Shown: positions 44,624 through 64,000 of the stretch, one piece after another
Layout of the letters: the number at the start of each line of letters is the position of its first letter
Numbering within the stretch: the first letter of the stretch is position 1
Assembly: GCF_000718785.1 (NCBI RefSeq)
Contig: NZ_JOCA01000001.1
Span: forward strand, 496,001-560,000
Reading direction: 5' to 3'
DNA length: 64,000 nucleotides
Source of the DNA: Streptomyces sp. NRRL WC-3626
Lineage (GTDB): Bacteria; Actinomycetota; Actinomycetes; Streptomycetales; Streptomycetaceae
Notes under the pieces: generated by a model
The model's database searches: none
The model's input: the letters and a program-made list of their open reading frames with translations, nothing else
Told to the model about the DNA's origin: nothing
Translations under genes and position numbers: made by a program

Positions 44624-44624
44624 G

Positions 44625-46834: not shown

Positions 46835-47139
46835 GATGTTCTCCGCACTCGAGAGCCGTCGGCATCTCGTGAGTCATGGTGAAAGGTTTTCGAAAATTCC
46901 TTCTTCTTGCTCTGGTGGAGCAAGCTAGGTTTCGATCTGATGCGGTGTCAATACGTGTGCAGCGGCGTTGCGGTGCGGACGGAGAACCGGCACAGCCTGG
47001 GCGATCAAGCCGTCCCGGGGAGCCCGGCAGGCTTCGAAACTGTTTCGAAAGGAACCGGATCAAGGTGGTGATGACGCGGTGGCGACGGGCTGACAGACTG
47101 TCGGTGCAGGTCATACCGGGCCCCAGCCGAGAGGAAGCG
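46835..47139. promoter_or_regulatory. Divergent control region with two LacI-type operators
   Basis: TTTTCGAAAA at 46887-46896, about 50 bp from the binding-protein start, and the 17-bp perfect palindrome TTCGAAAC-T-GTTTCGAA at 47033-47049 on the regulator side. Both contain the CGAA-TTCG inverted pattern reported for BxlR-type repressors. Nothing else is visible in the 305 bp. Confidence 0.8.
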
Positions 47140-48168
47140 ATGCGACCGAACGCCAGGCGCACCACGTTGGCGGACATCGCCCGAGCGGCCGGGGTCTCCG
47201 TCGCGACGGTGTCCAAGGTGGTCAACGGCCGCGGTGACGTGGCGCCGCACACCCGCGTCCGTGTGCAGGAACTGCTGCATCAGCACGACTACCTCGCGCC
47301 CGTGTTCCGGCACACCGAGGCCGTCGAGAACCCGACCATCGAGGTGCAGTTCCAGGGCGGCCTCAAGTCGTACGTCGCGGAGACCCTGGAGGGCATCGTC
47401 GACTCGGCCGCCGCGTCAGGGGCCTCGGTGGTGGTCAGCAAGGCGTCCAGTGCCCCGCACTGGGCCCGGGACCTGGTCTCGGCCGGGCGCCGCGCCGTCA
47501 TCGCGGTCACCAGCGTGTACACGGCGGCTCATCTCGGCGAGCTGGCCCGGTCCGGGCTGCCGCTGGTCGTGCTGGACCCGCTGCATCTGCCGGACAGCCG
47601 GGTCAACAGCGTCGGGGCAACCAACTTCGCCGGCGGACTGTCCGCGACCCGGCACCTGCTCTCCCTGGGCCACCGCCGCGTCGCCTATCTCGGCGGACCG
47701 GCCATGGCCGTCTGCAACCAGGCACGTATGCACGGCTACCGCGCCGCCATGGAGGCGGAGGGAGCGCGGGTACCGGACGGCTACGTCCGGCCCGGAGAGT
47801 TCACGTACGAGACCGGACTGCTCGGCGCCGCGGCGCTGCTGGACCTGGACGAACCTCCGACGGCGGTCTTCGCGGGGAACGACGAGATCGCGCTCGGCGT
47901 CATCGAGACCGCTCGCGCCCGGGGCCTGCGCGTTCCCGAGGACCTGAGCGTGGTCGGCTTCGACGACACGAGCCTCGCCCAGATGTCCTCACCGCCCCTG
48001 ACCACCGTGCGCCAGCCGCTCCGGGAGATGGGCGCCGCGGCCCTGCGCACCGCCCTGCGACTGGCCAGTGGCGAGAAGGCCGAGTCCCACCACATCGAGC
48101 TCGCCACCGAACTCGTGGTACGCGCCTCGACGGCACCGCCTCGCGAGGGGACGCCGGCGCACGGGTGA
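47140..48168 (+). CDS. LacI-family sugar-responsive repressor (BxlR-like)
   Basis: 342 residues. N-terminal HTH TTLADIARAAGVSVATVSKV and hinge, then a periplasmic-binding-protein-like sensor domain (RVNSVGATNFAGGLSATRHL; FAGNDEIALGVIETARARGL; SVVGFDDTSLAQMSSPPLTT). The ATG at 47140 has GAGGAAG; upstream starts in the same frame are less well placed. Likely represses the adjacent ABC operon and itself through the two palindromes. Confidence 0.88.
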   Translation: MRPNARRTTLADIARAAGVSVATVSKVVNGRGDVAPHTRVRVQELLHQHDYLAPVFRHTEAVENPTIEVQFQGGLKSYVAETLEGIVDSAAASGASVVVSKASSAPHWARDLVSAGRRAVIAVTSVYTAAHLGELARSGLPLVVLDPLHLPDSRVNSVGATNFAGGLSATRHLLSLGHRRVAYLGGPAMAVCNQARMHGYRAAMEAEGARVPDGYVRPGEFTYETGLLGAAALLDLDEPPTAVFAGNDEIALGVIETARARGLRVPEDLSVVGFDDTSLAQMSSPPLTTVRQPLREMGAAALRTALRLASGEKAESHHIELATELVVRASTAPPREGTPAHG

Positions 48169-48187
48169 GCACGGACGACGGCGTACC

Positions 48188-48226
48188 GGTCCCGGGGCCC
48201 GCGGTGCGCCGCGGGCCCCCGGGACC
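48188..48226. terminator. Bidirectional terminator between lacI and the giant gene
   Basis: A stem of about 17 bp (arms 48188-48204 and 48209-48226, GGTCCCGGGGCCC...) between the LacI stop and the stop of the 3067-codon gene. Confidence 0.8.
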
Positions 48227-48231
48227 GCCCG

Positions 48232-51200
48232 TCAGGTGTCCCGCCCCGAGGCCGTCGGGAGGAACAGCAGACCCGGCATCACCACCCGGCGCGCGTCCAG
48301 CAGGACGGCCCGGAACACCGTGGCGAGGAAGGCGGTCTGGGCCGGGTCGAGCCTGTCCTGCGCCCTCGCCCTGCCTCTCGGCACGGCCAGGGCACGGCCG
48401 AGGCGAGACAGTTCCGTCAGGATTCCGGCCGGTTCCAGCAGCGGGGCGGGATCGACCCGCTCCCCCACCGACAGCAGGAGTCCCCGGGCGACCCGCTCCA
48501 GCTCGGGATCCTGTTCCGCCGCCGCCCGGTACAGCCTGGACCGCCCGAAGATCACCAGGCGCTCCAGCTCGTCCGGCTCCATCAGCGCCGTCACCGTCGG
48601 GATCCTCCCCCACAGACCGGCCCGGCCCCGCTCACCGCCCAGCCAGGGGACGATCATGGGGTCGACATGGACGGCCCGCAGGGCCCGTTCCCCCACGTTG
48701 TACGCCAGGTCGACGGCGAACCCCGCCTCCTCCGGGTCGGTGGCGCTCCTCGCCGCGCTGAGCAGCGTCGCCCCGAGGAGCGGCAGGAGGTCCACCTCCC
48801 GCTCCTCCCAGTCCTCCTTCATACAGACGTCGATCCAGTCGTCCAGGGCCCGCGCCGCCTCGTCGGACAGGCCCCCGGTGCCACCGGAGTCCAGATGGTG
48901 CGCCGCCGCCCGCACGACCCGCTGCCCGGCGGGCGTCTCCCCGGCGCCGACGATCTCGAGGTCCGGGTCGAGACACAGCTCCCGGTAGCGCTCGAAGGAC
49001 GTGTCACCGGTTCCCGCGGCGACGGACAGCACGGAACGGGGCAGGTCGGGCACCGTACCGCGCTGGTTCCGCGGGACGGTGCGCACCTGCGTCATGCCGT
49101 CGTCGGGGCGGTCGGTCAGCGCCTCCACCTCTCCGACGAGCCGCTCGTTCTCATGGTGCTTGGACGACCGGCTGAGGAAGGACACGATGATGTCGTTGCT
49201 CTCCAGCCGGGCCAGATACTCGTGCCGGCCGTGGCGCGGTCCGCGGTGCGTGATGCCGAGCACGAGCAGACGGACCGGCTGGCCGATGTCCAGGTGCCGG
49301 AAGTGGCTGAGCGCCGACGCCGAGGTGGTGCACGAGACATGTCCGCCGGAACCCACCTGGGCCCAGACCGGCCGCCGCGGCCGGACCAGGCACTCGTGCA
49401 GCTGCTTGCCCGTCAGCTCCGCCCAGGCCGCGTGCGCCGTGGGCAGCCAGCGCAGGGCGCCGGAGCCGCTCTCCTGGCACAGCACGCCCGCCGGACGCCG
49501 TTCGCCGCCGTCCCCGCGGATCACGGCGACCGGCAGCACCCGCCGCTCGGCCGCCTCCCGCAGGCGCAGTCCGCTCACCGTCGTCCCGTCGGCCGTACGG
49601 TGCAGCCACAGCGCGTGGTCACCGACGACGGGCCGCTCCCGGTCGGTCAGCGCCTCGGCCACCGGGACGGCGGCATCGGCCGGCAGACCGGGAACCAGTT
49701 CGGCGGGGTGAAGGGCGAGCAGGGCCCCGCCGCTGCGCAGCACGAGCCGGCCGTCCGCCAGCCGCCCCGCGGGCCACGCCCGCGTCTGCCACACCTCCCC
49801 GGGGCCGGACGGCAGTCGCGGCTGGGCCGAACGGGACACCGTCAGGGTGCCGTCGGGCCCGGTCTCCTCGACGGTCACGGGCAGCGCGCCGTCGGTCATG
49901 GCCAGCAGCGACGAGACCCGTTCCGGGCCCCCCTCGAGCTCCCGGCGGATCCAGGCGTCGTCCGCCCAGCCCTCGTCGGCGAGCAGGACGGCCCCCGCCG
50001 GCACCCCGTGGACGAGGAGGACGCCCGACGCGTCGCACCCCAGCAGTACGGCGTCGCCGCGCTCGGGGGCCCCGGACCACCGAGCGAGCCGGTTGTCCGG
50101 GGTGAGACGCACCGTGTGGCCCTCCGCGTGGCGTTCCGCCGCCGCGCGGGTGACCGGATACTGCAGCTCCCGTCCGGCGCCGCCCAGACGCAGCGCGCCG
50201 TACTCCGGATCGCTTCCGAGCACCGTCAGCACCGCCGGTACGTCTCCCAGCGCCCCGCGCAGTCCCGGACGCCAGTCGTGCAGGACGACACAGGTGGGCT
50301 CCGTCAGCCCGCGGTGGTGGGCGGACACCCGCACCGTGTCGCCGGGCCGGAACAGTTCCCAGCACAGCCCCTCCAGGGACTCCGGGCTGCCGCTGTGCAG
50401 GGTGTGCATCAGGCCGCCGGGCAGCTCGACCAGACGGCCGGGCGACAGCTCGAGCCACAGCCCGTCGGCCCCGTGTACCCCGTCGGAGTGCCGTGCCGGG
50501 CCCGCGACGGTGTACCAGTGCGCCGTATGCGCCGTGGCCGCCCGGCCGGTCCCGGCGCCGGGCGTGCCGGGACGGTCGGTGAGGTGACCGGCGGGGAAGC
50601 CGAAACGGCGGCCCTGATCCGGCGGGTACCGCAGGGAGGGACCGGCGGCGGGGACCACCGGCGGCACGCCGCCCCCGCGGTCCAGTGACTCGGGCACCAC
50701 GGACTCGGGACGTCCGTCGGGCCAGCGTCCGGTACGGCTGTCGTGCGGCACCTCGCGGGCGCCGGCGTGCCGCCCGGCGATCCAGCGGGTGTCGCGGTCC
50801 GCGAAGGACAGCTGCGCCGGATCGATCGGCGTCCCCCTCGCCTCCTCCTCCCCGGCCGGGGGAACCACCGGGGTCAGCCGCGCCTCGAACGTGCCGGGGT
50901 CGACGGAGAGCCACGACACCGAGGACCCGCCGGCCCCCGGGGCCACGATCTCGAAGTCCTTCCCCCGTACGCGCAGCCGGCCGGTCTTCGGGTGCCGGTG
51001 CCGCATCACCTGGGCGACGGAGCCGGCGACGGCCTCCCCGGGCTCGGCCGACGGCGCCATCAGTTCCACGTTGGGCAGCCCGGAGACGACGAACAACGGC
51101 TGGCTCAGCTGTCTGGCGTCTGGCCGCCGTCCGCTCAGGAGGGGGTTCTTGGGGAACACCACGGCCTCGCGGCCGTCGACCGCGTAGGCGGAGTCGCCCG

Positions 51201-54200
51201 GCAGTGCCACACGGAGCCGGAACCGGTCGTCGGCGGTCCGGGTGACGCGCACCACCATGCCCGGTTCCACGTCGCTCCACCCGGCGATGTCGGCGTGGCC
51301 CAGGACGACGTGGATGCCCGCCCGCAACTCCAGCCGGATGTCCGGCTCGTGCTGCGTCACCGTGGCGAAGCACGAGGGGTCGCGCGCGGTGAGCCGGCTG
51401 AGCAGCGCCTTGGCACGCCGGGCCGGCGAGTTGGTCAGCCGCCCCTCGAAGGCGCCGTCGCTCTCCCGCCGGCCGCGCAGCTCGACCAGATAGGGCGTGT
51501 CCTTGAGGGCGTCCTTCCCGCCGCCGTCGAAGATCCGGCGCAGCAGGTTCTCCCGGTGGGCGAAGGTCCGGCGGGTGACCCGTGCGGTGATCGGCTCCGG
51601 CCGCTGTCTCGAGCCGAGTTCCAGCGTCAGGTCGAGCGTGACGTCGTTGCGGCGGGGCTGGATGGGCCCGGCCCACATGAAGACGTGCTGGCCCCTGTGG
51701 AGCGCGTCCTTGGCCTTGCCGTCGATGACCGGCCGGATGTGCAGGAACTCGACGTCCCGCCCGTTGCTGCGGTCCCAGCGGCCGGTGTCCAGCTTCCCGA
51801 GCACCCTGACGACATCGGGTCCCGAGGGGTAGTGGCGCAGGACGGACGCGGCTCCGGCCCTGGTCATCCGGAGCCGGGGGGTGCTCACCTCCCCCGGGCG
51901 CTCGCCCGCGTCGTCCACGCCGAACGACCCGCCGCGGCTCTGGACCTCGATGACGTGCGCCTCGTTCGCCGCCCGGTCGAGGCGGACCGTCAGCCGTGCG
52001 ACGATGCCGAGGCCGGCGTCGTCGCGCAGTCCCCGTTCGACGGACCAGCGGATCGCGTGTCCGTGCAGACGCAGCCAGAACCGGTCCCTCGCCGCGCCGT
52101 GCTCGCCCTGCCGGGTCTTCGGGGTGACGGTCAGCCGGGTGATCTCGTCGCCGTGGAAGAACGGCAGTTCCTGGGCGGACCGCAGCGGGTGGTCGTCCAG
52201 CATGACGTCGTTGACGTGGACCCGCAGGGTGCGTCCGTAGCCCCATTCGAAGAGGAGCCACTCGAAGGGGTGGCGCACCCGCCCCGGCCGCTCCGGCCGT
52301 TCCACCCGCTCCGGGCCCACGAAGTACAGGGAGGTCTCCGTCTCCCGGCCCTCCACGATGTTCTGCGCCTTCATGAATTCGCCCAGTCCCAGCGGCGGGA
52401 CCTGACGGTAGGAGGCCGTGTGGGTCGCGGTGCCCGCGGCCGGACCGGAGGCCGGCCGCACCACGACACGGACGTGCTTGGGGGAATAGGCCGCCCCCTC
52501 GACATGGGGCCGCTCGTCCGGTTCGAGGGGTACCGGCGGCAGGCTGACGCGGCGGGTGCCGCCGTCGACGGGGACGGGGAGCAGCACGGCCTTCCCGTCG
52601 CGCAGTTCGGCGTTCCAGCCGTACCTCTTCATGACCACAGGCCACGCCTTGTCGTGCAGACCGTCGGCGTCGGCGGTGCGCGCCTCGGTGAGGACGAAGA
52701 TCCGGCGCACCTCGCACAGATCCGTACCGCCGACCGGCCGGATCCGCAGGTTCACCGCGTCCACCTGCCACGCCTGGTCGGTGTCGTGGGCTCCCTCGGT
52801 GAGGCCCCAGGCCGAGCGGCCGCGGTCCAGCCGCACCTCGGCACGCTGCCGGAGCACGGGCTCCCGGCCTCCTCCCTGCTCGCCCCACTCGCGGAAGGAG
52901 GGCCCGAGCGACACCTGCGCGGACGCGAACTCGTCCCGGCCCCGCTGCCGCGGCGAGGACAGTTCGGCCAGCTCGCCCGGCCGGCCGTGGGTCTGCCAGT
53001 AGGTGGACCGCCGCGCCGACGCGTCGAGGGAGGCGCCCACATAGGTGTGGCCGCCCGTGACCGTCTTGGTGACGCGCCACAGGCAGCGGGTGAAGACGCG
53101 GCGCCGGCACGGGGTGAAGACCCAGTGCCGGCCCGACCGGAAGGCCCGGACCTGGTCGCCGCCGGCGCTTCGGGACTCGGTGAAGGCGTCCCACGGGACG
53201 TGCACGTCGAGCACGCGGTGGCCCACCCGCAGCCACACCCGCGGCGCCTCCCCCGAATGGGCCGGGGGCGCCGACAGCAGCACCCCGTCGAGACGCTCCC
53301 TCGTCTCGAGCACCGCGCCGGCCTCGGCGGCCGCCCGGTCGTCCAGCCCGGCGAGCAGGTCGTCGGTGGAGACGGCGGCGCGCACATCGCGCGGGCCGGC
53401 CGGCCCGGGGTCGCGGTTGCCCCAGGTGACTCGGGTGACGACCGCCTCCCGGCCCCGGACCGCGCGCCGCCAGTCGTCGGTGTCGCGGGCGGGCCGCAGT
53501 ATGACGGACTCCGCCTCGACGGAGACGAGGGCGTTCCCGTCGGCCGTCCAGGCGCCGTACGAGCCGTTGCGGGGCGCGGCCGACGCGCCCGCGCGCAGCC
53601 GGACGAGGTGGCCCTTGCGCAGGCCGTGGAGCGCGTTGAACGCCTCGATGGTCGCCTGCTGGCCGACGAGGTGCGGATTCTCGCGGGCCTTGACGCGGCC
53701 CGTGCGCATCGCCTTCTCGTCCCAGCCGTCGATCGACTGCTCGACGGTGTCCGCCACCTGGGGAGGCATGTCGTACACGACCACGTCGGGGAAGCCGGGG
53801 ATGTCGTGCTCCACCCGCCATCCCCCGTCCTTCCTGGTCACCTGGACGGTGTCCGGGAGACACAGGTCGCGCCAGCGCAGGTTGCGGGTGTCGACACCGT
53901 CCACCGCGGCGTCCGGGTGCCGGCCCGCGGGCTCGTCGCCGGGCGGCCCGGTGACGAGGGCGAGCCGGGGCGGGTGGTCGCCCTCGGGCTCGACCACCCG
54001 TACCCGGCAGCGCAGCCCCTCGGGGTCCTGCGCCTCGGCGATCTCCTCGTGCAGCCGCGCGGCGGACTCCGGTTCCCAGCACCGCTCCGGGAGAAGGTAG
54101 GTGTACCCGGGCCTCGCTGAGAACCGCCACGATCCGGGTTCCGCGCCGGTGTCCCCCATCAGGGTCAGTACGCCCGTCGTCCCGCCGTCGTACGGCAGCC

Positions 54201-57200
54201 GGGCGGCGAGGAACTCGGTGAAGCCGCGGTCGACGGGCTGCCAGCCGTGCTCCTCGTACCGTGCCACCGTCTCGACGACCACCTCGTCCCCCCCGCCGTC
54301 GGCGAACCTCCGGGAGAGGTCGGGGTCCCATTCGGCGAGCGGTCCGTGGTCCTCCTCCGTGAGGGCGGGGGCGTCCGCGAGGACCACACTCGCCGTCGCC
54401 TGCTCCGGGCGCAGGGTGACGCGCACCCGGCGTACGTCACCCGCCCGGTGCGTCACCGGAAGCCGCTGGGGGACGCCCTTGATCTCGATGCCCGTGTAGT
54501 TGTCGTGGCCCAGCTGGAAGCGGACCGGGTCGCCGATCTGGGCCCCTTCGTAGGCGTAGGCCTCCAGGGGGCGCTCCATACCGCAGTTGACCAGCAGCCG
54601 TCCGCCGTCGCCGGTCCGTCCGCACACCACGCCGAGCAGGCTCGGGGACTTGCCCATGGTCGCCTTGCGGACGGCCTCCTCGCACCGCTCCGGTTCCTGG
54701 TAGAGGTCGTAGGTGTCCGGCTGGTCCGGATCGACCGGCAGATGGTGGAACACCACCTCGTCGCTGCTCCGGTACGCGAGCTGGGCCACCACCGTGCGCA
54801 CATCGGGAAACCCCTTCCCGGGGCCGGGCCCGGCCGCGTGGCGCGCGGACATGCCGAGCGGTACGGTCCGTGACCGCAGGACGGGGGTGAGGGCCGAGTT
54901 CTCCCAGGACCTCTCGATGAACTCGCGGTTGTTCCCGCTCTCCGGGACGGCGTCCCGCGTCAGGGTCCGGACCAGCCGGTCGAGCTGACGGCCGAGCGCC
55001 TGCCCGGTCTCCCGGTACATGGCCCGCTCCCAGACGTCCGGCAGGGCACGGCCCCTTCCGGCCACGGTGAGCCGGCCGTCGTAGGACAGGCTGAGCAGGC
55101 GGGTGCGTACGGTGGTGTCGGTGTGGGATGCCAGCCGGTCGAACAGCAGTCGCTGGTCGGTGGGCGTGCGCAGGCCGAACTCCGTGAAGACGTCGAGGAG
55201 TTTGCTCAGTACCCGGCTCTCCTGTTCGTCGTCGCCCCGGATGACGTCGAAGATCTGCAGCTGATACCAGCGGATCAGCCGCGCGAGTTCCCTGGGCTCC
55301 CGGATCCGGTCCATCCGGCCGGCCCAGATCTCGACGAGGCGGCCGAGTTCCGGGTCGGCCGGCCCGCCACGCGACTGCGACAGGGCCTGCAGCAGCCGCA
55401 CCGAGGCCCCCGCGAGCCCGACCGCCGAGTTGCCGCCGTCGACCTTGGCGACCCAGGAGTCGAAGACTTCCCGGTCCTGACGGGTCGCCAGATCGCTCGC
55501 CGGCGTGAGCAGTACCTCCTGGAAGGTCTTCGGTCTGCGGCCCATGTCGCGGTCGCGCGTCACACGGTCGGCGGTGACGTCCCGGCGCAGCAGCAGCCGC
55601 AGGAGCAGCAGCGCGTTGCCGAGCTGATGGCGCCGGACCCATGGGTGGAGTCCGCGCGCGGCCTGGTCCAGCACCCTTTCGGCGAGGGGCGGTTCGCCGT
55701 CGAACCAGCGGCGCTGCGGGCTGCTGTCCTGCGGGCCGGTGGCTCCGGAGAGCGCGTCCAGTACGGCGGACACCAGCACGTTCAGCGCTCCCCCGTCCTG
55801 GTGGAGCAGCTGGGACTGACGGTAGAAGCGCTGGGTGGGGTCCTTCCAGGACCCGGAATCGGCGCCGGCGATGGCCCGGTGCGCGAACACCTCCGGATGC
55901 AGTTCCGGGTACACCCCGCGCAGGGCGTACGTTCCCGTCCGGTAGGCGGCGAGGGCGAGCGGTACCAGCACGGTCGGGAGCGGCGCGTCCTCGTGCTTCT
56001 CGGTGCCGTGGGTGAGGTTCAGCATGTACGCCCCGAGCCGGCCCTCGGCGAGGACCTCGGCGCCGTGCATCACCAGGTCGGCGAGGAAGCGGGACTCCTC
56101 GACGCCGTGCCGCATCAGCCTGACCGCGGTGCGCAGTGACGACAGCAGCCGCAGGAGGACGACCGGATCGTGCACCGCGGGGAAGCGCCCGCTTCCGGCC
56201 GCGGCGTTCGCGCCGGTCCGCGCCCGGTCCAGCCACGGCGAGAAGGCCCAGGCGGACACACCGGGGAGTCTGAGCGTGTCGAGGTGGCCGGTTCTGACCA
56301 CCTGGCCTCCGGTGGAGCCGTTCTCCCCGGCCGGGACCCGCGGTCCGGTGCGCAGCTGCCAGAGGTCGGTGAGCTGACGTGCCCAGGCGCCGCGTTCCCT
56401 GTCCCCGACCGGGCCGCTGAACCGCACCGGATAGCGGGGCTGGCCGCCGGGCGCGCCCCACCGCTCCACCAGGACCGCCGCGGCCTGTGCGGGGTGCAGC
56501 CGGGCCGCCAGGTCCCAGAGGACCTGCTGCCACAGGACGGCGGACAGGGCGGGGGGCGCCGGTTTGCCGGCGGGCAGGCCGAGACGGCCGAGGACACGGT
56601 CGGCCCCGGTCACCGGCCGGATGTCGCCGCGCAGTCTCCGCAGCCGGCGCAGTCCGTCGAGTGTGACGGCGTCGGTGTCCAGGGCGGTGACGGTCCGCTC
56701 CGCGTCCTGGCCGGTGCCGAGGTGCAGCAGCCGTGCCGCGGCGGCCATCAGGTCGGGTTCCAGGTCGGCCCAGCCGACGGCGGGCCTGCCGAGCGCCTTC
56801 AGCAGCCGGTCGCGTTCGGCTTCGGTGGAGCCGATGCCGCCGAGGGCACGCAGGGCGAGCAGGAACGGCAGGCGTCCCCATTCGTGGCGTGCCGCCCGGC
56901 GGGTGAGCTCGTCGAGCCACGAGTTCTCGGCGCGCAGGTCCGAGGCGATGTCCTCGGCCGCGCCGGGCTGCCCGGCGAGGTGCGCGGTCACGGCCAGCAG
57001 GAGGGTTTCCCGCGGGTAGTGGGTGAGTTCGCGGAACGGCTCCTGGGTGGTCCTGGGCGTGGCGTCGCGGCCCCAGACCTGCACGGCGTGGCGCAGCCGT
57101 GCGGCGGCGCGGGAGGGGCGTTCCTCCGCGCAGGCCCGGACCGCGGCGGTGAGGGCCTCGCCGACCGGGCCGCCGCCCGCCGTGCCGACCACCGTCCCGA

Positions 57201-57435
57201 GGAGGTGTTCCATGCAGAGGTCGGCGCTCTCGCCGCCCGCGGTGGCGAGGGTCAGCAGCCGGGGGACGACGTGCAGGGCGGTCCAGGGTTCGCAGCCGTC
57301 CAGCGCTTCCAGGGCGTCCGGAAGCGTCTCGTCCAGTGCCACGGGAGCGTCCAGGACGTCGAGTACGGCCAGGTAGGCGTGGGCGGCGTGCGGCGTGTCG
57401 CGCATCGCGGCGCAGAAGTACCAGTCCTCGATCAT
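48232..57435 (-). CDS. Giant 3067-residue protein of a CHAT-protease operon, helical ends and beta-rich core
   Basis: The ATG at 57435 overlaps the TGA of the CHAT protease gene (ATGA); the frame is open a further 2.2 kb upstream, but that is antisense shadow of the protease gene. By eye: residues about 1-950 are alpha-helical repeats (Leu/Ala/Arg-rich, e.g. GNALLLLRLLLRRDVTADR); about 950-2700 is a chain of beta-rich modules with alternating hydrophobic strands, many VRV/RVRVTL-type strands and repeated GxxV.VRVTRT or PG.VVRV turns that recall OB/SH3/S1-like barrels (e.g. EPGMVVRVTRTADDRFRLRV, RKGHLVRLRAG-like); about 2750-3067 is helical again (ALDDWIDVCMKEDWEEREVD). No catalytic motif, signal peptide or membrane span found, so cytosolic. 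It could be the protease substrate, a sensor/scaffold, or a nucleic-acid-binding trap. I do not recognise a named family. Confidence 0.85.
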   Translation of the reverse strand: MIEDWYFCAAMRDTPHAAHAYLAVLDVLDAPVALDETLPDALEALDGCEPWTALHVVPRLLTLATAGGESADLCMEHLLGTVVGTAGGGPVGEALTAAVRACAEERPSRAAARLRHAVQVWGRDATPRTTQEPFRELTHYPRETLLLAVTAHLAGQPGAAEDIASDLRAENSWLDELTRRAARHEWGRLPFLLALRALGGIGSTEAERDRLLKALGRPAVGWADLEPDLMAAAARLLHLGTGQDAERTVTALDTDAVTLDGLRRLRRLRGDIRPVTGADRVLGRLGLPAGKPAPPALSAVLWQQVLWDLAARLHPAQAAAVLVERWGAPGGQPRYPVRFSGPVGDRERGAWARQLTDLWQLRTGPRVPAGENGSTGGQVVRTGHLDTLRLPGVSAWAFSPWLDRARTGANAAAGSGRFPAVHDPVVLLRLLSSLRTAVRLMRHGVEESRFLADLVMHGAEVLAEGRLGAYMLNLTHGTEKHEDAPLPTVLVPLALAAYRTGTYALRGVYPELHPEVFAHRAIAGADSGSWKDPTQRFYRQSQLLHQDGGALNVLVSAVLDALSGATGPQDSSPQRRWFDGEPPLAERVLDQAARGLHPWVRRHQLGNALLLLRLLLRRDVTADRVTRDRDMGRRPKTFQEVLLTPASDLATRQDREVFDSWVAKVDGGNSAVGLAGASVRLLQALSQSRGGPADPELGRLVEIWAGRMDRIREPRELARLIRWYQLQIFDVIRGDDEQESRVLSKLLDVFTEFGLRTPTDQRLLFDRLASHTDTTVRTRLLSLSYDGRLTVAGRGRALPDVWERAMYRETGQALGRQLDRLVRTLTRDAVPESGNNREFIERSWENSALTPVLRSRTVPLGMSARHAAGPGPGKGFPDVRTVVAQLAYRSSDEVVFHHLPVDPDQPDTYDLYQEPERCEEAVRKATMGKSPSLLGVVCGRTGDGGRLLVNCGMERPLEAYAYEGAQIGDPVRFQLGHDNYTGIEIKGVPQRLPVTHRAGDVRRVRVTLRPEQATASVVLADAPALTEEDHGPLAEWDPDLSRRFADGGGDEVVVETVARYEEHGWQPVDRGFTEFLAARLPYDGGTTGVLTLMGDTGAEPGSWRFSARPGYTYLLPERCWEPESAARLHEEIAEAQDPEGLRCRVRVVEPEGDHPPRLALVTGPPGDEPAGRHPDAAVDGVDTRNLRWRDLCLPDTVQVTRKDGGWRVEHDIPGFPDVVVYDMPPQVADTVEQSIDGWDEKAMRTGRVKARENPHLVGQQATIEAFNALHGLRKGHLVRLRAGASAAPRNGSYGAWTADGNALVSVEAESVILRPARDTDDWRRAVRGREAVVTRVTWGNRDPGPAGPRDVRAAVSTDDLLAGLDDRAAAEAGAVLETRERLDGVLLSAPPAHSGEAPRVWLRVGHRVLDVHVPWDAFTESRSAGGDQVRAFRSGRHWVFTPCRRRVFTRCLWRVTKTVTGGHTYVGASLDASARRSTYWQTHGRPGELAELSSPRQRGRDEFASAQVSLGPSFREWGEQGGGREPVLRQRAEVRLDRGRSAWGLTEGAHDTDQAWQVDAVNLRIRPVGGTDLCEVRRIFVLTEARTADADGLHDKAWPVVMKRYGWNAELRDGKAVLLPVPVDGGTRRVSLPPVPLEPDERPHVEGAAYSPKHVRVVVRPASGPAAGTATHTASYRQVPPLGLGEFMKAQNIVEGRETETSLYFVGPERVERPERPGRVRHPFEWLLFEWGYGRTLRVHVNDVMLDDHPLRSAQELPFFHGDEITRLTVTPKTRQGEHGAARDRFWLRLHGHAIRWSVERGLRDDAGLGIVARLTVRLDRAANEAHVIEVQSRGGSFGVDDAGERPGEVSTPRLRMTRAGAASVLRHYPSGPDVVRVLGKLDTGRWDRSNGRDVEFLHIRPVIDGKAKDALHRGQHVFMWAGPIQPRRNDVTLDLTLELGSRQRPEPITARVTRRTFAHRENLLRRIFDGGGKDALKDTPYLVELRGRRESDGAFEGRLTNSPARRAKALLSRLTARDPSCFATVTQHEPDIRLELRAGIHVVLGHADIAGWSDVEPGMVVRVTRTADDRFRLRVALPGDSAYAVDGREAVVFPKNPLLSGRRPDARQLSQPLFVVSGLPNVELMAPSAEPGEAVAGSVAQVMRHRHPKTGRLRVRGKDFEIVAPGAGGSSVSWLSVDPGTFEARLTPVVPPAGEEEARGTPIDPAQLSFADRDTRWIAGRHAGAREVPHDSRTGRWPDGRPESVVPESLDRGGGVPPVVPAAGPSLRYPPDQGRRFGFPAGHLTDRPGTPGAGTGRAATAHTAHWYTVAGPARHSDGVHGADGLWLELSPGRLVELPGGLMHTLHSGSPESLEGLCWELFRPGDTVRVSAHHRGLTEPTCVVLHDWRPGLRGALGDVPAVLTVLGSDPEYGALRLGGAGRELQYPVTRAAAERHAEGHTVRLTPDNRLARWSGAPERGDAVLLGCDASGVLLVHGVPAGAVLLADEGWADDAWIRRELEGGPERVSSLLAMTDGALPVTVEETGPDGTLTVSRSAQPRLPSGPGEVWQTRAWPAGRLADGRLVLRSGGALLALHPAELVPGLPADAAVPVAEALTDRERPVVGDHALWLHRTADGTTVSGLRLREAAERRVLPVAVIRGDGGERRPAGVLCQESGSGALRWLPTAHAAWAELTGKQLHECLVRPRRPVWAQVGSGGHVSCTTSASALSHFRHLDIGQPVRLLVLGITHRGPRHGRHEYLARLESNDIIVSFLSRSSKHHENERLVGEVEALTDRPDDGMTQVRTVPRNQRGTVPDLPRSVLSVAAGTGDTSFERYRELCLDPDLEIVGAGETPAGQRVVRAAAHHLDSGGTGGLSDEAARALDDWIDVCMKEDWEEREVDLLPLLGATLLSAARSATDPEEAGFAVDLAYNVGERALRAVHVDPMIVPWLGGERGRAGLWGRIPTVTALMEPDELERLVIFGRSRLYRAAAEQDPELERVARGLLLSVGERVDPAPLLEPAGILTELSRLGRALAVPRGRARAQDRLDPAQTAFLATVFRAVLLDARRVVMPGLLFLPTASGRDT

Positions 57436-59951
57436 CGTCTTGCCTTGTCGGTCTCGGAGGAGCGGGTGGCGGTTGCGGGCGCGCGGCCCACCGCGGTCCG
57501 GATGGCTTCGGTGCGCAGGGCCGCGTCGAAGCCCTGCGGTGGCGGGTGCGTACGGTTCAGCCCGAGCGCGTGGCGCTCGAGCGGAGGCAGCAGAAGCAGC
57601 CGGCCCAGGGTCTCGTTGTCGACGCCGACGGCCCGCAGCAGCGGCCACGGTGCCGTGGTGGCGGGCAGCAGGCCGAGGACCTTCCCCGCCAGGACGTCGA
57701 GCCCGGCGCGGGCCGCGGCCGGGGCGCTGTCCGGGTAAACGGCCAGCCAGGCCGCCAGTGCGGACGCGTCGGGCCGGGCGTGGGCCCACCCCTCGCGGAA
57801 CCGGCGTACCAGGCGGCGGACGGGTGGGGACAGCAGGGGGTCGTCCCAGGCGACCAGGTCGCCCGCGGAGAGCTTCGCGACCTGCTTCAGGAGGGCCAGG
57901 GCGATGGTGTCGGCCCGCTCCGAGTCGACGTCCAGCGGCAGGCCACCAGGACGGGGCACCGGCCGGCCGGCGCCGAGCGCCCCGATCCAGGCGCGCATGT
58001 CGTCGTCGTACTCGGCGGCAGCGCTCAGGGAGGCGCGGTGGCCGGGCAGCCGTTCGTCGGCCGCCAGACGCTCCAGCGCTCGTCCGTACCGTCCGGGATC
58101 CCTCCGGCGCAGGTCCGACAGCGCCCTCGCGTCGGCGGGGAGGGCGTCGTCGTCCGGGCGGGCCGTCCCGTCGTCCCGGTACCGCTTGCCGGGGCGGTGG
58201 CGGCTCAGCGCGGTGACCGGTGCCCCGAGACGGTTCTCCAGGTCGTCCCGCACCTGCGCGAGGACGCCGGGCCCCTTGTCCTCCAGGAGTGCGGACGGCC
58301 CTCGCAGGACCACGACGAACGGCCGTCCCAGGCGTCCGTCCCGGTCCCGCAGGCGTTGCAGCCACTCGCCGATCCGTTCCTGCCACGAGTCGTGGGACCA
58401 GGCGGCCAGCTCGGTGCGCAGGACCCAGCCGTCGTCGGCCCTGCGGTCGACGTCGGCCGGGGAGCCGGGGTCGAACCGGGTGAAGAGCTGCCGGAAGTCG
58501 TGCCATTCGCCCTGGGTGGCCGTCGCGTGCTGCTCCCAGGAGGCCTGCGGCTCCGGGGCCCGCTCCACGTCGGTGGCGAACCACCGGCGGGCGGGCAGCC
58601 CGTTCCTGCGGAGCAGCACGGTCCAGGCCTTCTCGTAGTGGTTCAGGTCCTGTGCGAGGTCGTGGTCGGGGACGTCGAGGAGGACACCCGCGAACGGCGC
58701 GCGCTCCAGCCCCCACACCACGTCGAGTCGCGCCCTCCTGCCGTCGGTCCCCCACGCGGTCGTGGTACCGCCGGCCGTGGGACGCGGCACGAGGGGATAG
58801 GCGTGTGCGGGTCCCCGAACCGGCTCCGGCGGGGCCTCGCGCAGACGCAGGTCGCCGCTGCCGGTGTAGAGGGCGGGCACCGCGAGGTTGCCGACGATGT
58901 CCGTGCGGGTCCGCACCTCGGCGAGGCCCCTCGCCATCGCGGCGTGGATCTCGCCGTTCTCCGCCAGCCCGGTGGCCAGGCCGATGAGGAACTCCTGCCC
59001 CAGGTTCTGCCTCACCGGCGCCTGCATGGCCACCACGGCGGGGACGCCGCGGGCCACGATGTAGTGGGCGGCGGTGCCCCAGCCGCTCCGGGAGGCGTTC
59101 AGGCCCGCGGTGTCGCAGGCGATCAGGACGACGAGCTGGGTGCCCGACGCCTGGAACAGATCGGCCAGTTCGGAGGCCGGTACCCAGTCGGGGCCGGTGC
59201 CTTCGGACGCGTGCAGGACGATGCCGCATGCGTCGTCCCGGTCCGTCCAGCCGTGGGCGATGACGCACACGACGTGGGCGGTGGTCCGCAGCCGCTCGGT
59301 GAGCTGCTCGCGGGTGGCGGCGGGCAGCAGTTCGGCTTCGCCGATCTCCTTCAGCCGGCGCACCGCCTCGCCGGCCGCCTCCGCCGTCCAGTCGATCCGG
59401 CTCCGGGGTGTCCCGCCGGCAGCCCGGTCCGCCGGGCGGACGGCGTCCGCCGCCGTGACCACCAGGGAACGCAGGCCGGTCCGGAGCCCGGGGGAGGCGG
59501 CGGATTCGAGGACCCGGGAGACCACGAGCCGGTCCGGGTCGCTGACGAGGTGGGCGTCCCGGCCGGCCCCCGCCGGATCCGACGCCGACAGGGCGAGCGT
59601 CGTCCGGGCCAGTTCCCAGGGCAGCGCGGAGAACACCAGGTTGGCGCACCTGATCCTCATCCGCAGCGGGACGTCGTCCCGCAGGGCGTCGATGTAGGCC
59701 TGCTGGAAGGCCCGTTCGACGCCCTCGGGTAAGAGGAGCGGCCGAAGGGCCCAGCCGAGGTCCTCGGTGTCGCCCACCTTGTTCCGGAACCCGGCGACCA
59801 GCGCGCCGAGGTTCTCGCCGGTGCCCCGCCCCGTGACCCCGCCCTGTCTGCCGGACAGTTCGATGGATGCCGTCCAGAGCTCCGTGCCGTCCGCCAGGTC
59901 CTCCACCCCGGCGTTCGTCAGCGTCAGTTCGACCTCGTGTGCCTCGCCCAC
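57432..59951 (-). CDS. CHAT-domain (caspase-like) cysteine protease
   Basis: 839 residues from a GTG with GGGGG eight bases upstream (the frame opens earlier, at 60257, across the neighbouring gene). Residues 1-110 are beta-rich; about 110-370 are the CHAT fold with catalytic His233 in VVCVIAHGWTDRDD and Cys279 in LVVLIACDTAGLNASR, plus the usual GVPAVVAMQ...FLIGLATGLA and closing LYTGSGDLRL. Residues about 370-839 are an uncharacterised mostly helical region, perhaps sensing or substrate-binding. CHAT proteases act in bacterial immunity and cell death (for example activating gasdermins or as Craspase). Coupled to the giant gene downstream and 25 bp from the membrane-protein gene upstream. 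Confidence 0.88.
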   Translation of the reverse strand: MGEAHEVELTLTNAGVEDLADGTELWTASIELSGRQGGVTGRGTGENLGALVAGFRNKVGDTEDLGWALRPLLLPEGVERAFQQAYIDALRDDVPLRMRIRCANLVFSALPWELARTTLALSASDPAGAGRDAHLVSDPDRLVVSRVLESAASPGLRTGLRSLVVTAADAVRPADRAAGGTPRSRIDWTAEAAGEAVRRLKEIGEAELLPAATREQLTERLRTTAHVVCVIAHGWTDRDDACGIVLHASEGTGPDWVPASELADLFQASGTQLVVLIACDTAGLNASRSGWGTAAHYIVARGVPAVVAMQAPVRQNLGQEFLIGLATGLAENGEIHAAMARGLAEVRTRTDIVGNLAVPALYTGSGDLRLREAPPEPVRGPAHAYPLVPRPTAGGTTTAWGTDGRRARLDVVWGLERAPFAGVLLDVPDHDLAQDLNHYEKAWTVLLRRNGLPARRWFATDVERAPEPQASWEQHATATQGEWHDFRQLFTRFDPGSPADVDRRADDGWVLRTELAAWSHDSWQERIGEWLQRLRDRDGRLGRPFVVVLRGPSALLEDKGPGVLAQVRDDLENRLGAPVTALSRHRPGKRYRDDGTARPDDDALPADARALSDLRRRDPGRYGRALERLAADERLPGHRASLSAAAEYDDDMRAWIGALGAGRPVPRPGGLPLDVDSERADTIALALLKQVAKLSAGDLVAWDDPLLSPPVRRLVRRFREGWAHARPDASALAAWLAVYPDSAPAAARAGLDVLAGKVLGLLPATTAPWPLLRAVGVDNETLGRLLLLPPLERHALGLNRTHPPPQGFDAALRTEAIRTAVGRAPATATRSSETDKARR

Positions 59952-59976
59952 CTTGTGAACCCCCGTGTTCGTTCGT

Positions 59977-60765
59977 TCAGCCCGCGAGGAGCAGCACCGC
60001 CGCCTCGACGACCAGTACGGCTGCGGCGGCCTGCCACTGGAACCTGCGCAGCCGGTCGCCCGTCCGGGCCGGTCGGCCGGGTGCCGGGGGACCTCCGCCG
60101 GCCGGTGCCGGGACCGGTGGCAGGGCGGCGTGCGACACGGCCAGCCAGGCGATCTCGCGGGCGGGGATCGCCAGACGTACATAGACGGCGGGCCAGGTGC
60201 CGTCCCCCGACGCCTGGTCCTCGCGGAACAACTCCACACTCTTGAGGACCAGTTCACGCCGGTCCACCTCGGGGTGGGTGTTCATGGAGTGGAAGAATCC
60301 CGATACACGGTATCCGCCGCTTTTCAACGCGACCACCAGTTTGGGGCGTTTTCCCGCCGGGACGTCGTTGTAGAGCAGCTCGTACCACACGTCGTCGAAG
60401 CTCTGGATGCCTCCGCCGGTCGGCGAGCGGACCAGTCCGACGGCGAGGAGCGCCAGCGCCGTGGCCGCGAAGAGCTCCGCCGCGAGTCCGATCGCGGTGA
60501 GCTCCGGGTGCGCCGTGGCATAGCGGGCCGAGTCGGCCAGCAGTCCGGTGGGACTCGGCAGGCTTCCCGGCCGTATCTCACGCAGGGTGATCAGCAGCGC
60601 GGTCGCGGCGGCCGTGCTCAGGGCTCCGACCAGCACCACCCGGGCGCTCTCCACGAACGGGCTCTCCACGCGGGAGGGGCTGCGGCGGCGCAGACTCAGC
60701 TCGAAGGCCAGCCCCGGCACCACGACGACCAGGAAGACGAGGACGGCCGTGAAGGATGTGGGCAA
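59977..60765 (-). CDS. Multi-pass membrane protein, DUF6338-like
   Basis: 262 residues from a TTG with GGGGTGA nine bases upstream. Transmembrane segments are at about 5-25 (LVFLVVVVPGLAFEL), 42-60 (VVLVGALSTAAATALLITL), 84-108 (IGLAAELFAATALALLAVGL) and 244-262 (WQAAAAVLVVEAAVLLLAG). Residues 115-225 form a cytoplasmic beta-rich domain (PKLVVALKSGGYRVSGFFHS, SVELFREDQAS). The pattern resembles DUF6338, a membrane family of unknown function; assignment from memory. In an operon with a CHAT protease it is the obvious candidate for a membrane effector or anchor. Confidence 0.75.
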   Translation of the reverse strand: MPTSFTAVLVFLVVVVPGLAFELSLRRRSPSRVESPFVESARVVLVGALSTAAATALLITLREIRPGSLPSPTGLLADSARYATAHPELTAIGLAAELFAATALALLAVGLVRSPTGGGIQSFDDVWYELLYNDVPAGKRPKLVVALKSGGYRVSGFFHSMNTHPEVDRRELVLKSVELFREDQASGDGTWPAVYVRLAIPAREIAWLAVSHAALPPVPAPAGGGPPAPGRPARTGDRLRRFQWQAAAAVLVVEAAVLLLAG

Positions 60766-60771
60766 CGGGCG

Positions 60772-61020
60772 TCACCCCGCGGAGTCGTCGGACTGCCGGG
60801 TGGTCTCGGGCGGCGGTGCCGTGGCGGCGGGGGCCGGAGCCCCGATCTCGAAACGCGGCGACACCTCGTCGTGCTGCGGGTCCTCGTGGGAGGGGTCCGC
60901 GCGCACCACGCCGTAGGAGTCGTCGTCGCGGCCGCCGGACAGCCGCACCGGCCTCGGGGGCGCGGAGGACGGCGGTTCCTCGTCCTCGTACGCCTCGTGG
61001 AAGGAATCTGCTGCGGACAT
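60772..61020 (-). CDS. Small acidic, probably disordered protein heading the CHAT operon
   Basis: 82 residues (MSAADSFHEAYEDEEPPSSA...), rich in Asp, Glu, Pro and Ser, with no hydrophobic core. The ATG at 61020 follows GGGGGTGG; the stop is six bases before the next TTG start and overlaps its ribosome site, so it is co-translated with the membrane protein. No family recognised. It might be a regulatory peptide, substrate or inhibitor of the protease. Confidence 0.7.
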   Translation of the reverse strand: MSAADSFHEAYEDEEPPSSAPPRPVRLSGGRDDDSYGVVRADPSHEDPQHDEVSPRFEIGAPAPAATAPPPETTRQSDDSAG

Positions 61021-61066
61021 ACGGCCCACCCCCGTGGAACGTCCAGTGCGGAGGAACAACATATAG

Positions 61067-61140
61067 CGCCCACCGGTCCGTGTCCGGTGGGCGGGGAGGT
61101 TCCATCCGTTCGGGCGGCTCGGTCCGCCGCCCGAACGGAT
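61067..61140. terminator. Two tandem hairpins between the Nramp gene and the CHAT operon
   Basis: Hairpin 1 has a 15-bp perfect stem 61104-61118/61126-61140 (ATCCGTTCGGGCGGC), ten bases past the Nramp stop. Hairpin 2 has a 10-bp stem 61067-61076/61084-61093 (CGCCCACCGG). They end transcription from the right. The CHAT operon promoter must lie in or just after them, and TATATG near 61060 (minus strand) is a possible -10. Confidence 0.75.
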
Positions 61141-61149
61141 CCGGTACGG

Positions 61150-62568
61150 CTACTCCGGCACGGCTCCCAGTGTCTTCAGTACGCCGTACACGCCGACGCA
61201 CAGGATGGCGGTACTGCTGAGCACGAGGGCCGCGGTGAGCCAGGGGTTGGCGCGGAAGCGCGGGGGGACTCCGGTGTGGCGCAGGCGCCAGACGGCGACG
61301 ACCACGGCGAGCAGGAAGACGCCGCCGCCGATGCCGCCGATCTGCACCATCAGCACCGGCGACTGCATCCAGAGGAAGAAGCAGGTCCACAGCAGCGGCA
61401 GGCACCAGGTGAGAATGCGGATGGCGCGGGTGCGGGCGCGGACGTCGCCCCAGTCGACGACGCCGAGCAGGCCGAGGGTGTTGGTCCACAGCCGGGGCAC
61501 AGAGGCGGTGGAGCCGATGAGGGTGGAGAAGAGGACGGCGAACGCGCCGACGAGGAACAGGTACTCGGCCCAGGGGCCCATGGTGTCGGTGTAGATCCGC
61601 GAGAGCGTGGTGATCATCTCGTTGCCCTCGGGCACCAGGCCCTGCGGGTGGAGCACGGCCGCGCCGATGACGTAGAAGGACAGCGTGCACAGCACGCAGA
61701 CGGCGAGGCCGGTGAGGGCGTCCAGGCGCATCACCTTGATCCAGCCCTCGGCACGGCGGGCGCGCTCCTCGCTGCCGTCGTCCGGGCCGGTCCAGCGGGC
61801 GTAGCCCTTCTCCAGGCACCAGTAGGTGTACGTGGTCATCTCGTCGGCGCCGACGCCGGTGATGCCGAAGACGGCGAGCGCGATGCCGACGGTGCCGGCC
61901 GGGATCTCGAAGCCGAAGCCGCTGCCGAATTCGCTGCCGCCGTAGCCGAACTCCGTGCCGGGCAGGCCGACCGCCAGGCTGACGGTGACCAGGGTGAAGA
62001 CGACGACGGAGACGAGGCAGGCGCGTTCGACGAGGCTGTACTTGCCGGACTGCAGCAGCAGGATGGCGGCGACCGTGACGACGACCGCCCACAGGGCCAG
62101 GGAGCCCCAGCTCAGTGGCTCGCCGATGACCGGCCACAGCACCGAACAGGCCGCCGCCGTACCGCCGATGATGCCTCCGCGCTGGAACATCTTGGCGAAG
62201 TCCATGCCGATCCAGAGCCAGTTGATCCAGCTCAGTCGGCCGATGCGCGGGCCGATCTCGCGGTAACCCTCCAGCGCGGTGCGCCCGTTGAGGATGGTCC
62301 ACTGGGCCAGTTCCATCTGGACCCAGACCTTGACCGCGGTGGAGACGATGACCAGCCAGAGCAGGGCGAAGCCGGCCTGGGCGCCGAGTGCGGTGGTGGT
62401 GATCAGCTCGCCGGAGCCGACGACGGCGGCCGACAGGACGAAGCCGGGGCCGAGATGGCGGATCCGTTCGCGGAAGGCGGTGGGTGCCGGGCGGGCGTCC
62501 TCGGGGCGCAGGGCGTACGGATCGGCCTGCGCGTGCTCCGCCGCTGGGGCGGTGGCGGTGGTCGACAT
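61150..62568 (-). CDS. Nramp-family transporter with non-canonical metal motif
   Basis: 472 residues, about 11 membrane spans. The TM1 motif reads LSAAVVGSGELITTTALGAQ: the DPGN of metal-transporting Nramps is replaced by GSGE. TM6 carries FGITGVGADEMTTYTYWC in place of the MxxH motif. Related non-metal Nramp homologues are known, so the substrate may be an organic ion rather than Mn2+/Fe2+. The gene lies downstream of a hydroxyacid dehydrogenase and an aldolase on the same strand, which supports an organic-acid substrate. The specificity is inference. Confidence 0.8.
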   Translation of the reverse strand: MSTTATAPAAEHAQADPYALRPEDARPAPTAFRERIRHLGPGFVLSAAVVGSGELITTTALGAQAGFALLWLVIVSTAVKVWVQMELAQWTILNGRTALEGYREIGPRIGRLSWINWLWIGMDFAKMFQRGGIIGGTAAACSVLWPVIGEPLSWGSLALWAVVVTVAAILLLQSGKYSLVERACLVSVVVFTLVTVSLAVGLPGTEFGYGGSEFGSGFGFEIPAGTVGIALAVFGITGVGADEMTTYTYWCLEKGYARWTGPDDGSEERARRAEGWIKVMRLDALTGLAVCVLCTLSFYVIGAAVLHPQGLVPEGNEMITTLSRIYTDTMGPWAEYLFLVGAFAVLFSTLIGSTASVPRLWTNTLGLLGVVDWGDVRARTRAIRILTWCLPLLWTCFFLWMQSPVLMVQIGGIGGGVFLLAVVVAVWRLRHTGVPPRFRANPWLTAALVLSSTAILCVGVYGVLKTLGAVPE

Positions 62569-62666
62569 GGCGGTGTTCCTTTGCTGGTTCCGGCGCCGTC
62601 GCCGGAGCGGAAGGCAAACAGGGCGGATAAAGGCATGGGGGGTGGGGTGGTGGTTCGGCGGCGGGG

Positions 62667-63617: not shown

Positions 63618-64000
63618 GCCCGGCCGCCCTTGCGCGCCGCGTCCAGGTGGGTGGCCGCGATCTGCTGGAGATGGACGACGTCGGCGGCGACGGAGGCGAA
63701 GGTGAAGCCCTCGTCGAGCCGGCGGGCGGCGCTCGCCCCGTCGCCGTTGTGGATGCCGGCGGCGATGCCCGCGGCCCCGGCGGCCTCGCGGATGCGGGTG
63801 AGGGCCTGCTCGAAGGCCTCGGCCACCTCCGGGTCGGTGGAGGTCCGGCCGCCGATGGCCAGCCGCAGGTCGGAGGGGCCGACGTAGATCCCGTCGAGTC
63901 CCGGGGTCGCGCAGATCTCCTCCACGTTGGCGAGCCCGTCGGCGGTCTCGATCATGGCGAGTACGGCGGTCTGCTCGTGGGTGTCGGCCGGGTCGGGGCC
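63614..64000 (-). CDS. HpcH/HpaI-family aldolase, 3' part
   Basis: Only the C-terminal part (about 128 residues) is in the window; the gene continues beyond 64000. Signature: AMIETADGLANVEEICATPG with metal ligand Glu, then DGIYVGPSDLRLAIGG with metal ligand Asp, and FTFASVAADVVHLQQIA near the end. Class II pyruvate-dependent aldolases of this type cleave hydroxy-oxo acids to pyruvate and an aldehyde. Operon with the dehydrogenase and perhaps the Nramp-like transporter. Confidence 0.88.
   Translation of the reverse strand, partial: GPDPADTHEQTAVLAMIETADGLANVEEICATPGLDGIYVGPSDLRLAIGGRTSTDPEVAEAFEQALTRIREAAGAAGIAAGIHNGDGASAARRLDEGFTFASVAADVVHLQQIAATHLDAARKGGRA

What the first reader, a model, noticed from the sequence alone, without database searches (positions are those of the whole stretch)
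48232..61020. CHAT protease operon with a 3067-residue partner and a membrane protein: candidate undescribed death/defence system
Four same-strand genes are tightly packed (gaps 6 and 25 bp, then an ATGA overlap): a small acidic protein, a multi-pass membrane protein, a CHAT protease with His233/Cys279 intact, and a giant helical-beta-helical protein. CHAT proteases are known to execute bacterial immunity by cutting a partner. Here the only partners are the membrane protein (possible lytic effector, in the manner of gasdermin) and the giant protein (possible sensor or substrate). The operon is isolated by terminators on both sides, like a defence cassette.
Basis: partly seen in the sequence, partly recalled or inferred. 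Interest (0 to 1): 0.9.

Follow-up and report, generated by a model that had tools for sequence, protein, structure and literature searches.

The report
Giant-sensor CHAT protease membrane-effector cassette
A Streptomyces gene cassette pairs a caspase-like (CHAT) protease with a 3067-residue protein that looks like a string of RNA-binding-type folds and with a membrane protein of a family that, in Streptomyces, mostly sits beside such proteases, which suggests an undescribed protease-triggered cell-death or defence switch.

Summary
The four-gene operon is real as described. CHAT and giant lie side by side in all seven giant loci found in 392 Streptomyces genomes and on two plasmids; His233 and Cys279 are invariant. 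The membrane side is modular: three loci carry an acidic protein plus DUF6338 (as here), the others a second CHAT protease, usually with a small membrane protein. DUF6338 is independently tied to CHAT: of 40 other Streptomyces DUF6338 loci, 35 hold a CHAT gene and one a caspase, 31 of these 36 within 400 bp; the own genome has only five CHAT matches. AlphaFold models of giant residues 861-3067 resemble strings of S1/cold-shock OB folds. Best reading: the giant senses a nucleic acid, probably RNA, and gates the protease, which acts on a membrane effector. Linkage is shown and folds are predicted; sensing, cleavage, killing and phage defence are inferred. Against: metabolic flanks, no PADLOC match beyond the CHAT domain, and no CHAT within 1.5 kb of 16 DUF6338 loci outside Streptomyces. 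A new variant of the protease-plus-membrane-effector theme; my searches of the held library found no description of it.

The parts
61067..61093 (-). terminator-like hairpin upstream of the cassette (probably ends the Nramp gene)
   Evidence: 1 site found in 13.6 kb; 1.8 expected in shuffles
60772..61020 (-). small acidic, proline-rich, low-hydrophobicity protein (82 aa, pI 4.2); start uncertain (an in-frame ATG lies at 61062)
   Evidence: similar small acidic ORFs precede some other DUF6338 genes
59977..60765 (-). DUF6338 membrane protein, 262 aa, 4 hydrophobic segments; proposed effector or substrate
   Evidence: Pfam PF19865 E 2.1e-20; hydropathy; CHAT linkage of the family
57432..59951 (-). 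CHAT protease, 839 aa (CHAT domain about residues 157-343 plus a long C-terminal part)
   Evidence: Pfam PF12770 E 9.1e-19; alignment of 8 relatives
59253..59255 (-). codon of catalytic-type His233
   Evidence: invariant in 8 of 8 CHAT1 proteins aligned
59115..59117 (-). codon of catalytic-type Cys279
   Evidence: invariant in 8 of 8 CHAT1 proteins aligned
48232..57435 (-). giant protein, 3067 aa, no Pfam family; ATGA overlap with the CHAT gene
   Evidence: homologues; conservation fairly even along its length
54451..54699 (-). giant residues about 913-995: cold-shock/OB-like fold (predicted, weak)
53080..53628 (-). giant residues about 1270-1452: S1/OB-like fold with an insertion (predicted, weak)
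51421..51738 (-). giant residues about 1900-2005: S1-type OB fold (predicted)
49063..49323 (-). giant residues about 2705-2791: second S1-type OB fold (predicted)
48298..49038 (-). giant residues about 2800-3046: C-terminal all-helical part (predicted)
48188..48226 (-). long GC hairpin just 3' of the giant's stop codon, possible terminator without a T-run
   Evidence: stretch 48160-48245: z -3.2, 0 of 200 shuffles as stable

Best explanation
A protease-gated membrane-effector switch, most likely for cell death or defence. The giant is a scaffold containing a string of S1/cold-shock-type OB folds that binds single-stranded nucleic acid, probably RNA (fold predicted; binding inferred). Its overlapping, co-inherited CHAT partner is held by the giant and activated when the giant meets its ligand (overlap and co-inheritance shown; activation inferred). 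The active protease cuts the small acidic protein and/or the DUF6338 membrane protein, releasing a membrane-damaging or membrane-signalling activity (linkage of DUF6338 to CHAT/caspase genes shown; cleavage and membrane damage inferred). In related loci the membrane side is replaced by a second CHAT protease, usually with a small membrane protein, giving a two-protease arrangement with the same logic (replacement shown; function inferred).
Confidence: 0.45

Rival explanations
1. Same protease-membrane switch, but endogenous: it controls hyphal differentiation, stress response or programmed death in the colony rather than phage immunity, and the OB-string giant reads a host RNA or ssDNA signal.
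For: No defence-island context; Streptomyces is multicellular (general knowledge) and the CHAT-DUF6338 link was seen in Streptomyces only; DUF6338 is said to occur in biosynthetic gene clusters (PMC10433244, passage).
Against: Only 7 of 392 Streptomyces genomes had the giant and copies lie on plasmids with transposase and recombinase genes 6-10 kb away, unlike a developmental core gene.
Confidence: 0.25
2. The CHAT senses the trigger itself and the giant is a large cleavable inhibitor or titrating scaffold, not a sensor; the membrane modules are alternative substrates.
For: CHAT and giant always paired, overlapping start in the window; in type III-E the CHAT protease cleaves a partner, Csx30 (PMC10028731, passages).
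Against: OB-string models and fairly even conservation along 3000 residues fit a binding scaffold; a cleavable inhibitor need not be this large.
Confidence: 0.15
3. Membrane-proximal signalling rather than killing: the protease releases a signalling fragment from DUF6338 or the acidic protein to change gene expression.
For: Csx30 cleavage relieves a sigma factor in type III-E (PMC10028731, passages); the acidic protein is small and of low hydrophobicity.
Against: No regulator among the four genes; in other loci a different membrane protein takes the place.
Confidence: 0.1
4. Chance neighbourhood: membrane and acidic genes are unrelated passengers beside a CHAT-giant pair.
For: DUF6338 absent from 4 of 7 Streptomyces giant loci.
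Against: 36 of 40 other DUF6338 loci hold a CHAT or caspase gene and DUF6338 recurs beside a 28%-identity giant in L010.
Confidence: 0.05

Closest known systems
Bacterial and fungal gasdermin + protease two-gene clusters
   Same: Protease gene next to a membrane-acting effector gene, CHAT proteases included (PMC10197012, passages)
   Different: DUF6338 is a multi-pass membrane family with no gasdermin match here; a 3067-residue OB-string partner is added
Type III-E CRISPR Craspase (Cas7-11 + TPR-CHAT Csx29 + Csx30)
   Same: A CHAT protease controlled by an RNA-binding partner that cuts a neighbour-encoded protein (PMC10028731, passages)
   Different: No Cas7-11 match, no CRISPR array; the giant resembles S1/OB folds
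EACC1 + caspase membrane two-gene conflict system ('System 4', PMC7159879, section 33 read)
   Same: Actinobacterial pair of a membrane protein and a caspase-superfamily peptidase with variable partners
   Different: EACC1 is described as a single-TM domain; DUF6338 here has four hydrophobic segments, and the presumed sensor is a separate giant
Borvo (listed under CHAT in a table of PMC10952713, passage)
   Same: CHAT protease in an anti-phage setting
   Different: PADLOC BovA match here is E 0.038 only
Ribosomal protein S1 and other S1/CSD multi-OB proteins
   Same: OB-fold resemblance by structure search
   Different: The giant is far larger, lies beside a protease gene, and no sequence similarity to a solved structure was found

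Membership tests
CHAT protease (PF12770) | CHAT domain above Pfam cut-off | tested here: met
   68.4 bits, cut-off 24
CHAT protease (PF12770) | His/Cys catalytic dyad | tested here: met
   H233 and C279 invariant in 8 of 8 aligned proteins
CHAT protease (PF12770) | proteolytic activity | not testable with these tools
   needs an enzyme assay
DUF6338 (PF19865) | domain above Pfam cut-off | tested here: met
   73.6 bits, cut-off 26.5
Gasdermin-protease system | adjacent protease and membrane-protein genes | tested here: met
   linkage in the genus
Gasdermin-protease system | gasdermin-fold effector | tested here: not met
   only Pfam match of the membrane protein is DUF6338; four hydrophobic segments; its fold was not modelled
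Type III-E CRISPR (Craspase) | Cas7-11 effector | tested here: not met
   no Pfam match in the giant up to E 0.5
Type III-E CRISPR (Craspase) | CRISPR array beside the genes | tested here: not met
   only two-copy, 72-79% identical repeats in window 44000-64000
EACC1-caspase two-gene system | EACC1 domain | tested here: inconclusive
   no such match for the acidic, membrane or small membrane proteins scanned; whether Pfam holds EACC1 was not checked
VMAP/MoxR-vWA ternary systems | vWA and MoxR components in the locus | tested here: not met
   no such Pfam match in the four genes or the five flanking genes scanned
Borvo | BovA family protein | tested here: not met
   BovA E 0.038
S1/OB-fold nucleic-acid-binding proteins | S1-type OB folds | tested here: met
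S1/OB-fold nucleic-acid-binding proteins | binds RNA or ssDNA | not testable with these tools
   needs a binding assay

The most novel reading that the evidence does not exclude
A CRISPR-free RNA-activated caspase-like protease: a 3000-residue string of OB folds recognises foreign RNA (or ssDNA) without a guide and switches on its CHAT partner, which fires an exchangeable membrane effector; DUF6338 is the founding member of a large, undescribed class of CHAT/caspase-controlled membrane effectors in Streptomyces.
Probability: 0.3. Interest if true: 0.9.

Novelty: new variant of a known kind. Interest (0 to 1): 0.72.

Why it matters
If true, it shows a guide-free nucleic-acid sensor controlling a caspase-like protease in bacteria, and gives a function to DUF6338, a membrane family that the full-text search found in one paper. 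The CHAT-DUF6338 linkage predicts a protease-effector pair in roughly one in nine Streptomyces genomes (46 of 392 carry DUF6338), testable with ordinary cloning.

Tried and rejected
Whole-genome searches with the giant: 3067 aa was too long; 2900 aa worked for the own genome, one copy, but gave no answer for genus and class. A 600-aa piece worked for genus and class. The N-terminal alignment A2 gave the own genome plus one weak match in class and no answer in genus. A family-level scan gave no answer. Searches were not repeated. The weak class matches L015 (E 6.5e-4, one stop inside) and L017 (E 8.5e-4, 51 positions) were not counted as giants; tblastn of the giant on L015 gave a 45-residue hit only.

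Internal repeats in the giant by profile self-comparison: only weak (best probability 33). Sequence search of PDB with giant and CHAT: nothing useful. Rfam: none. P0036, which looked like a DUF6338-CHAT fusion, does not follow the two proteins' frames in its middle and end by my reading, so I rejected it as a fusion; it was described only. In L013 no small membrane protein was found. tblastn missed the DUF6338 of L010 that Pfam finds, so tblastn absences are weak. Absences from fold lists are not used as evidence.

Rows and limits: one search lists 48 rows above cut-off = 47 loci (G082 split in two). Three are giant loci. Of the other 44, 40 were fetched at about +-6 kb (two, L084 and L111, cut by contig ends) and 4 were seen at +-1.5 kb at most (CHAT in 2 of 4; L068 is cut short). 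Of the 40, L084, L103 and L123 have no candidate; L092 has a weak one (E 4.5e-3). Of 37 candidates, names 35 CHAT and 1 C14; the one unmatched I take to be L092 (the call does not name it). Two of the 16 profile seeds (L030, L037) are the same genes as in L090 and L099; Pfam was the check. The gaps were typed and run from the DUF6338 match edge to the stop-to-stop CHAT frame. The acidic-ORF scan left out L092 and L103 and its start choice is crude: it missed the L001 copy that tblastn finds. One class-level match above cut-off (G441:C143) was not looked at. Only 10 ORFs beside class-level DUF6338 genes were scanned with Pfam.

Full report
Observation. The four genes are present as stated: acidic 61020-60772, membrane 60765-59977, CHAT 59951-57432, giant 57435-48232, all on the minus strand, with gaps of 6 and 25 bp and an ATGA overlap. 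Pfam gives DUF6338 (2.1e-20) for the membrane protein, CHAT (9.1e-19) for the protease and nothing for the other two. PADLOC gives SAVED_CHAT at 9.6e-9 over the CHAT domain, and PtuA 0.019 and BovA 0.038. His233 and Cys279 were checked by position. A terminator-like site lies upstream (no more than shuffles give) and a strong hairpin without a T-run just downstream. Five flanking genes were scanned: Nramp, a 2-hydroxyacid dehydrogenase, a LacI regulator, a solute-binding protein and one without a family, so no defence island is visible.

The conserved core. The giant has 16 matches in a 5.8-billion-protein set, with Streptomyces, Micromonospora, Saccharothrix, Amycolatopsis and Nocardia among the named ones (only the 7976 candidates sharing most words were scored); a profile search added four more. 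In whole genomes it is rare: 7 of 392 Streptomyces genomes including the own one. Two scans of 394 genomes of the class gave the own genome plus one weak partial match each; at this sensitivity distant relatives may be missed. In all 7 Streptomyces loci (window, L001, L010-L014) a CHAT protease gene lies directly beside the giant, and the same pair is on two linear Streptomyces plasmids, near-identical to each other over 22.8 kb. Eight CHAT1 proteins aligned keep His233 and Cys279 and 56 invariant columns. Between the window and L001, dN/dS is 0.39 (giant, residues 1-2277), 0.42 (CHAT), 0.25 (DUF6338) and about 1.0 (acidic).

The membrane side is modular. Acidic + DUF6338 occurs in the window, in L001 (tblastn) and, in divergent orientation, in L010 (DUF6338 5.7e-33; acidic ORF, start uncertain). 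L011-L014 have no DUF6338 match at the giant locus in the profile search of the genus (G248, which holds L011, has one on another contig). L011, L012, L013, L014 and the two plasmids have instead a second CHAT protease of another family, and all of these but L013 also have a small membrane protein. The second-CHAT family with the small membrane protein also occurs in three plasmid stretches of about 20 kb without a giant: L020 (Streptomyces, with a further CHAT protein that looks WD40-like to me), L021 (Rhodococcus, where the CHAT protein is annotated as LRR) and L022 (Streptomyces, 671 aa). So the CHAT-giant core pairs with exchangeable membrane modules.

DUF6338 is tied to CHAT on its own. 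PF19865 is above cut-off in 46 of 392 Streptomyces genomes. I fetched 40 of the 44 non-giant loci at about +-6 kb. A CHAT profile made from 16 seeds, plus one caspase seed, found 37 candidate neighbours; Pfam named 35 of them CHAT and one Peptidase_C14, so 36 of 40 loci. Without the three loci where I first saw the link it is 33 of 37. Of the 36, 31 lie within 400 bp of the DUF6338 match. The own genome has 5 CHAT matches in 7.9 Mb, so by my estimate a random place would have one within a few kb less than 1% of the time; this base rate comes from one genome. The neighbours are not independent: they fall in 10 clusters at 40% identity or 7 at 30%, the largest holding 22 or 25 members including L092. 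Outside Streptomyces the link was not seen: 0 of 16 class-level loci had a CHAT gene within 1.5 kb; among the few neighbours scanned there were HsdM, DUF6602 and HNH genes. Small acidic, proline-rich ORFs precede DUF6338 in 9 of 38 Streptomyces loci examined, L095 only weakly, and were not seen in the other 29; a few class-level loci have them too. In PMC10433244 (passages) three proline-rich small proteins of Pseudomonas stutzeri are predicted to share an operon with a DUF6338 gene, which fits, although the paper says they are not conserved beyond that species.

Mechanism. Shown: gene order, co-inheritance of CHAT and giant, intact dyad, DUF6338-CHAT linkage in Streptomyces, module replacement. 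Predicted: OB-type folds. Inferred: the giant binds RNA or ssDNA; binding activates the CHAT; the CHAT cuts the acidic protein or DUF6338; this harms or signals at the membrane; the purpose is immunity or programmed death. The purpose is the least certain step.

Literature. Searches for DUF6338 (1 paper), CHAT protease with anti-phage and Streptomyces (0 papers), and other CHAT terms (listings) showed no description of this cassette or of a CHAT-DUF6338 link in the held open-access library; subscription papers and preprints are mostly not in it. Nearest published ideas: the EACC1-caspase membrane system (PMC7159879, section 33 and passages), Craspase (PMC10028731, passages), gasdermin-protease clusters including CHAT (PMC10197012, passages), Borvo (PMC10952713, passages). 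Passages of PMC8195603 added nothing.

Verdict. Observation confirmed. Defence is plausible, not shown.

Noticed in passing
L020 2960-10896; L021 7813-11003; L022 8800-11174: A CHAT family with a small membrane protein (about 106-136 aa) occurs on plasmids, LRR-fused, alone or with a WD40-like CHAT, and with no giant in the stretch: a separate module for which I found no family match.
   Followed up: partly
L023 4204-10065 (Calothrix plasmid): Two adjacent CHAT-like proteins by eye (1159 and 738 aa), the second distantly related to the second CHAT of the giant loci.
   Followed up: no
L042 2605-3636: A DUF6338 gene outside Streptomyces lies just before a type I restriction HsdM gene, a possible defence context.
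   Followed up: no
L089 7013-8137 (same gene as L029 2493-3617): DUF6338 followed by a caspase (Peptidase_C14) gene instead of CHAT.
   Followed up: partly
L001 2487-13163 against window 61261-50588: Homology with the window starts inside the last about 110 bp of the Nramp gene; L001 has other genes upstream of that point, suggesting that the cassette moved as a block.
   Followed up: partly
L018/L019 (plasmids NZ_CP108566.1, NZ_CP120984.1): The plasmid copies lie about 2 kb from a putative T7SS-secreted protein gene cluster on one side and 6-10 kb from transposase or recombinase genes on the other.
   Followed up: no
protein P0036 (Streptomyces sp. KM77-8): A DUF6338/CHAT reading whose middle and end leave the proteins' frames; a frameshifted gene or sequencing error rather than a true fusion.
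   Followed up: partly
protein P0037: A CHAT domain fused to a ParA/BcsQ-type ATPase domain.
   Followed up: no
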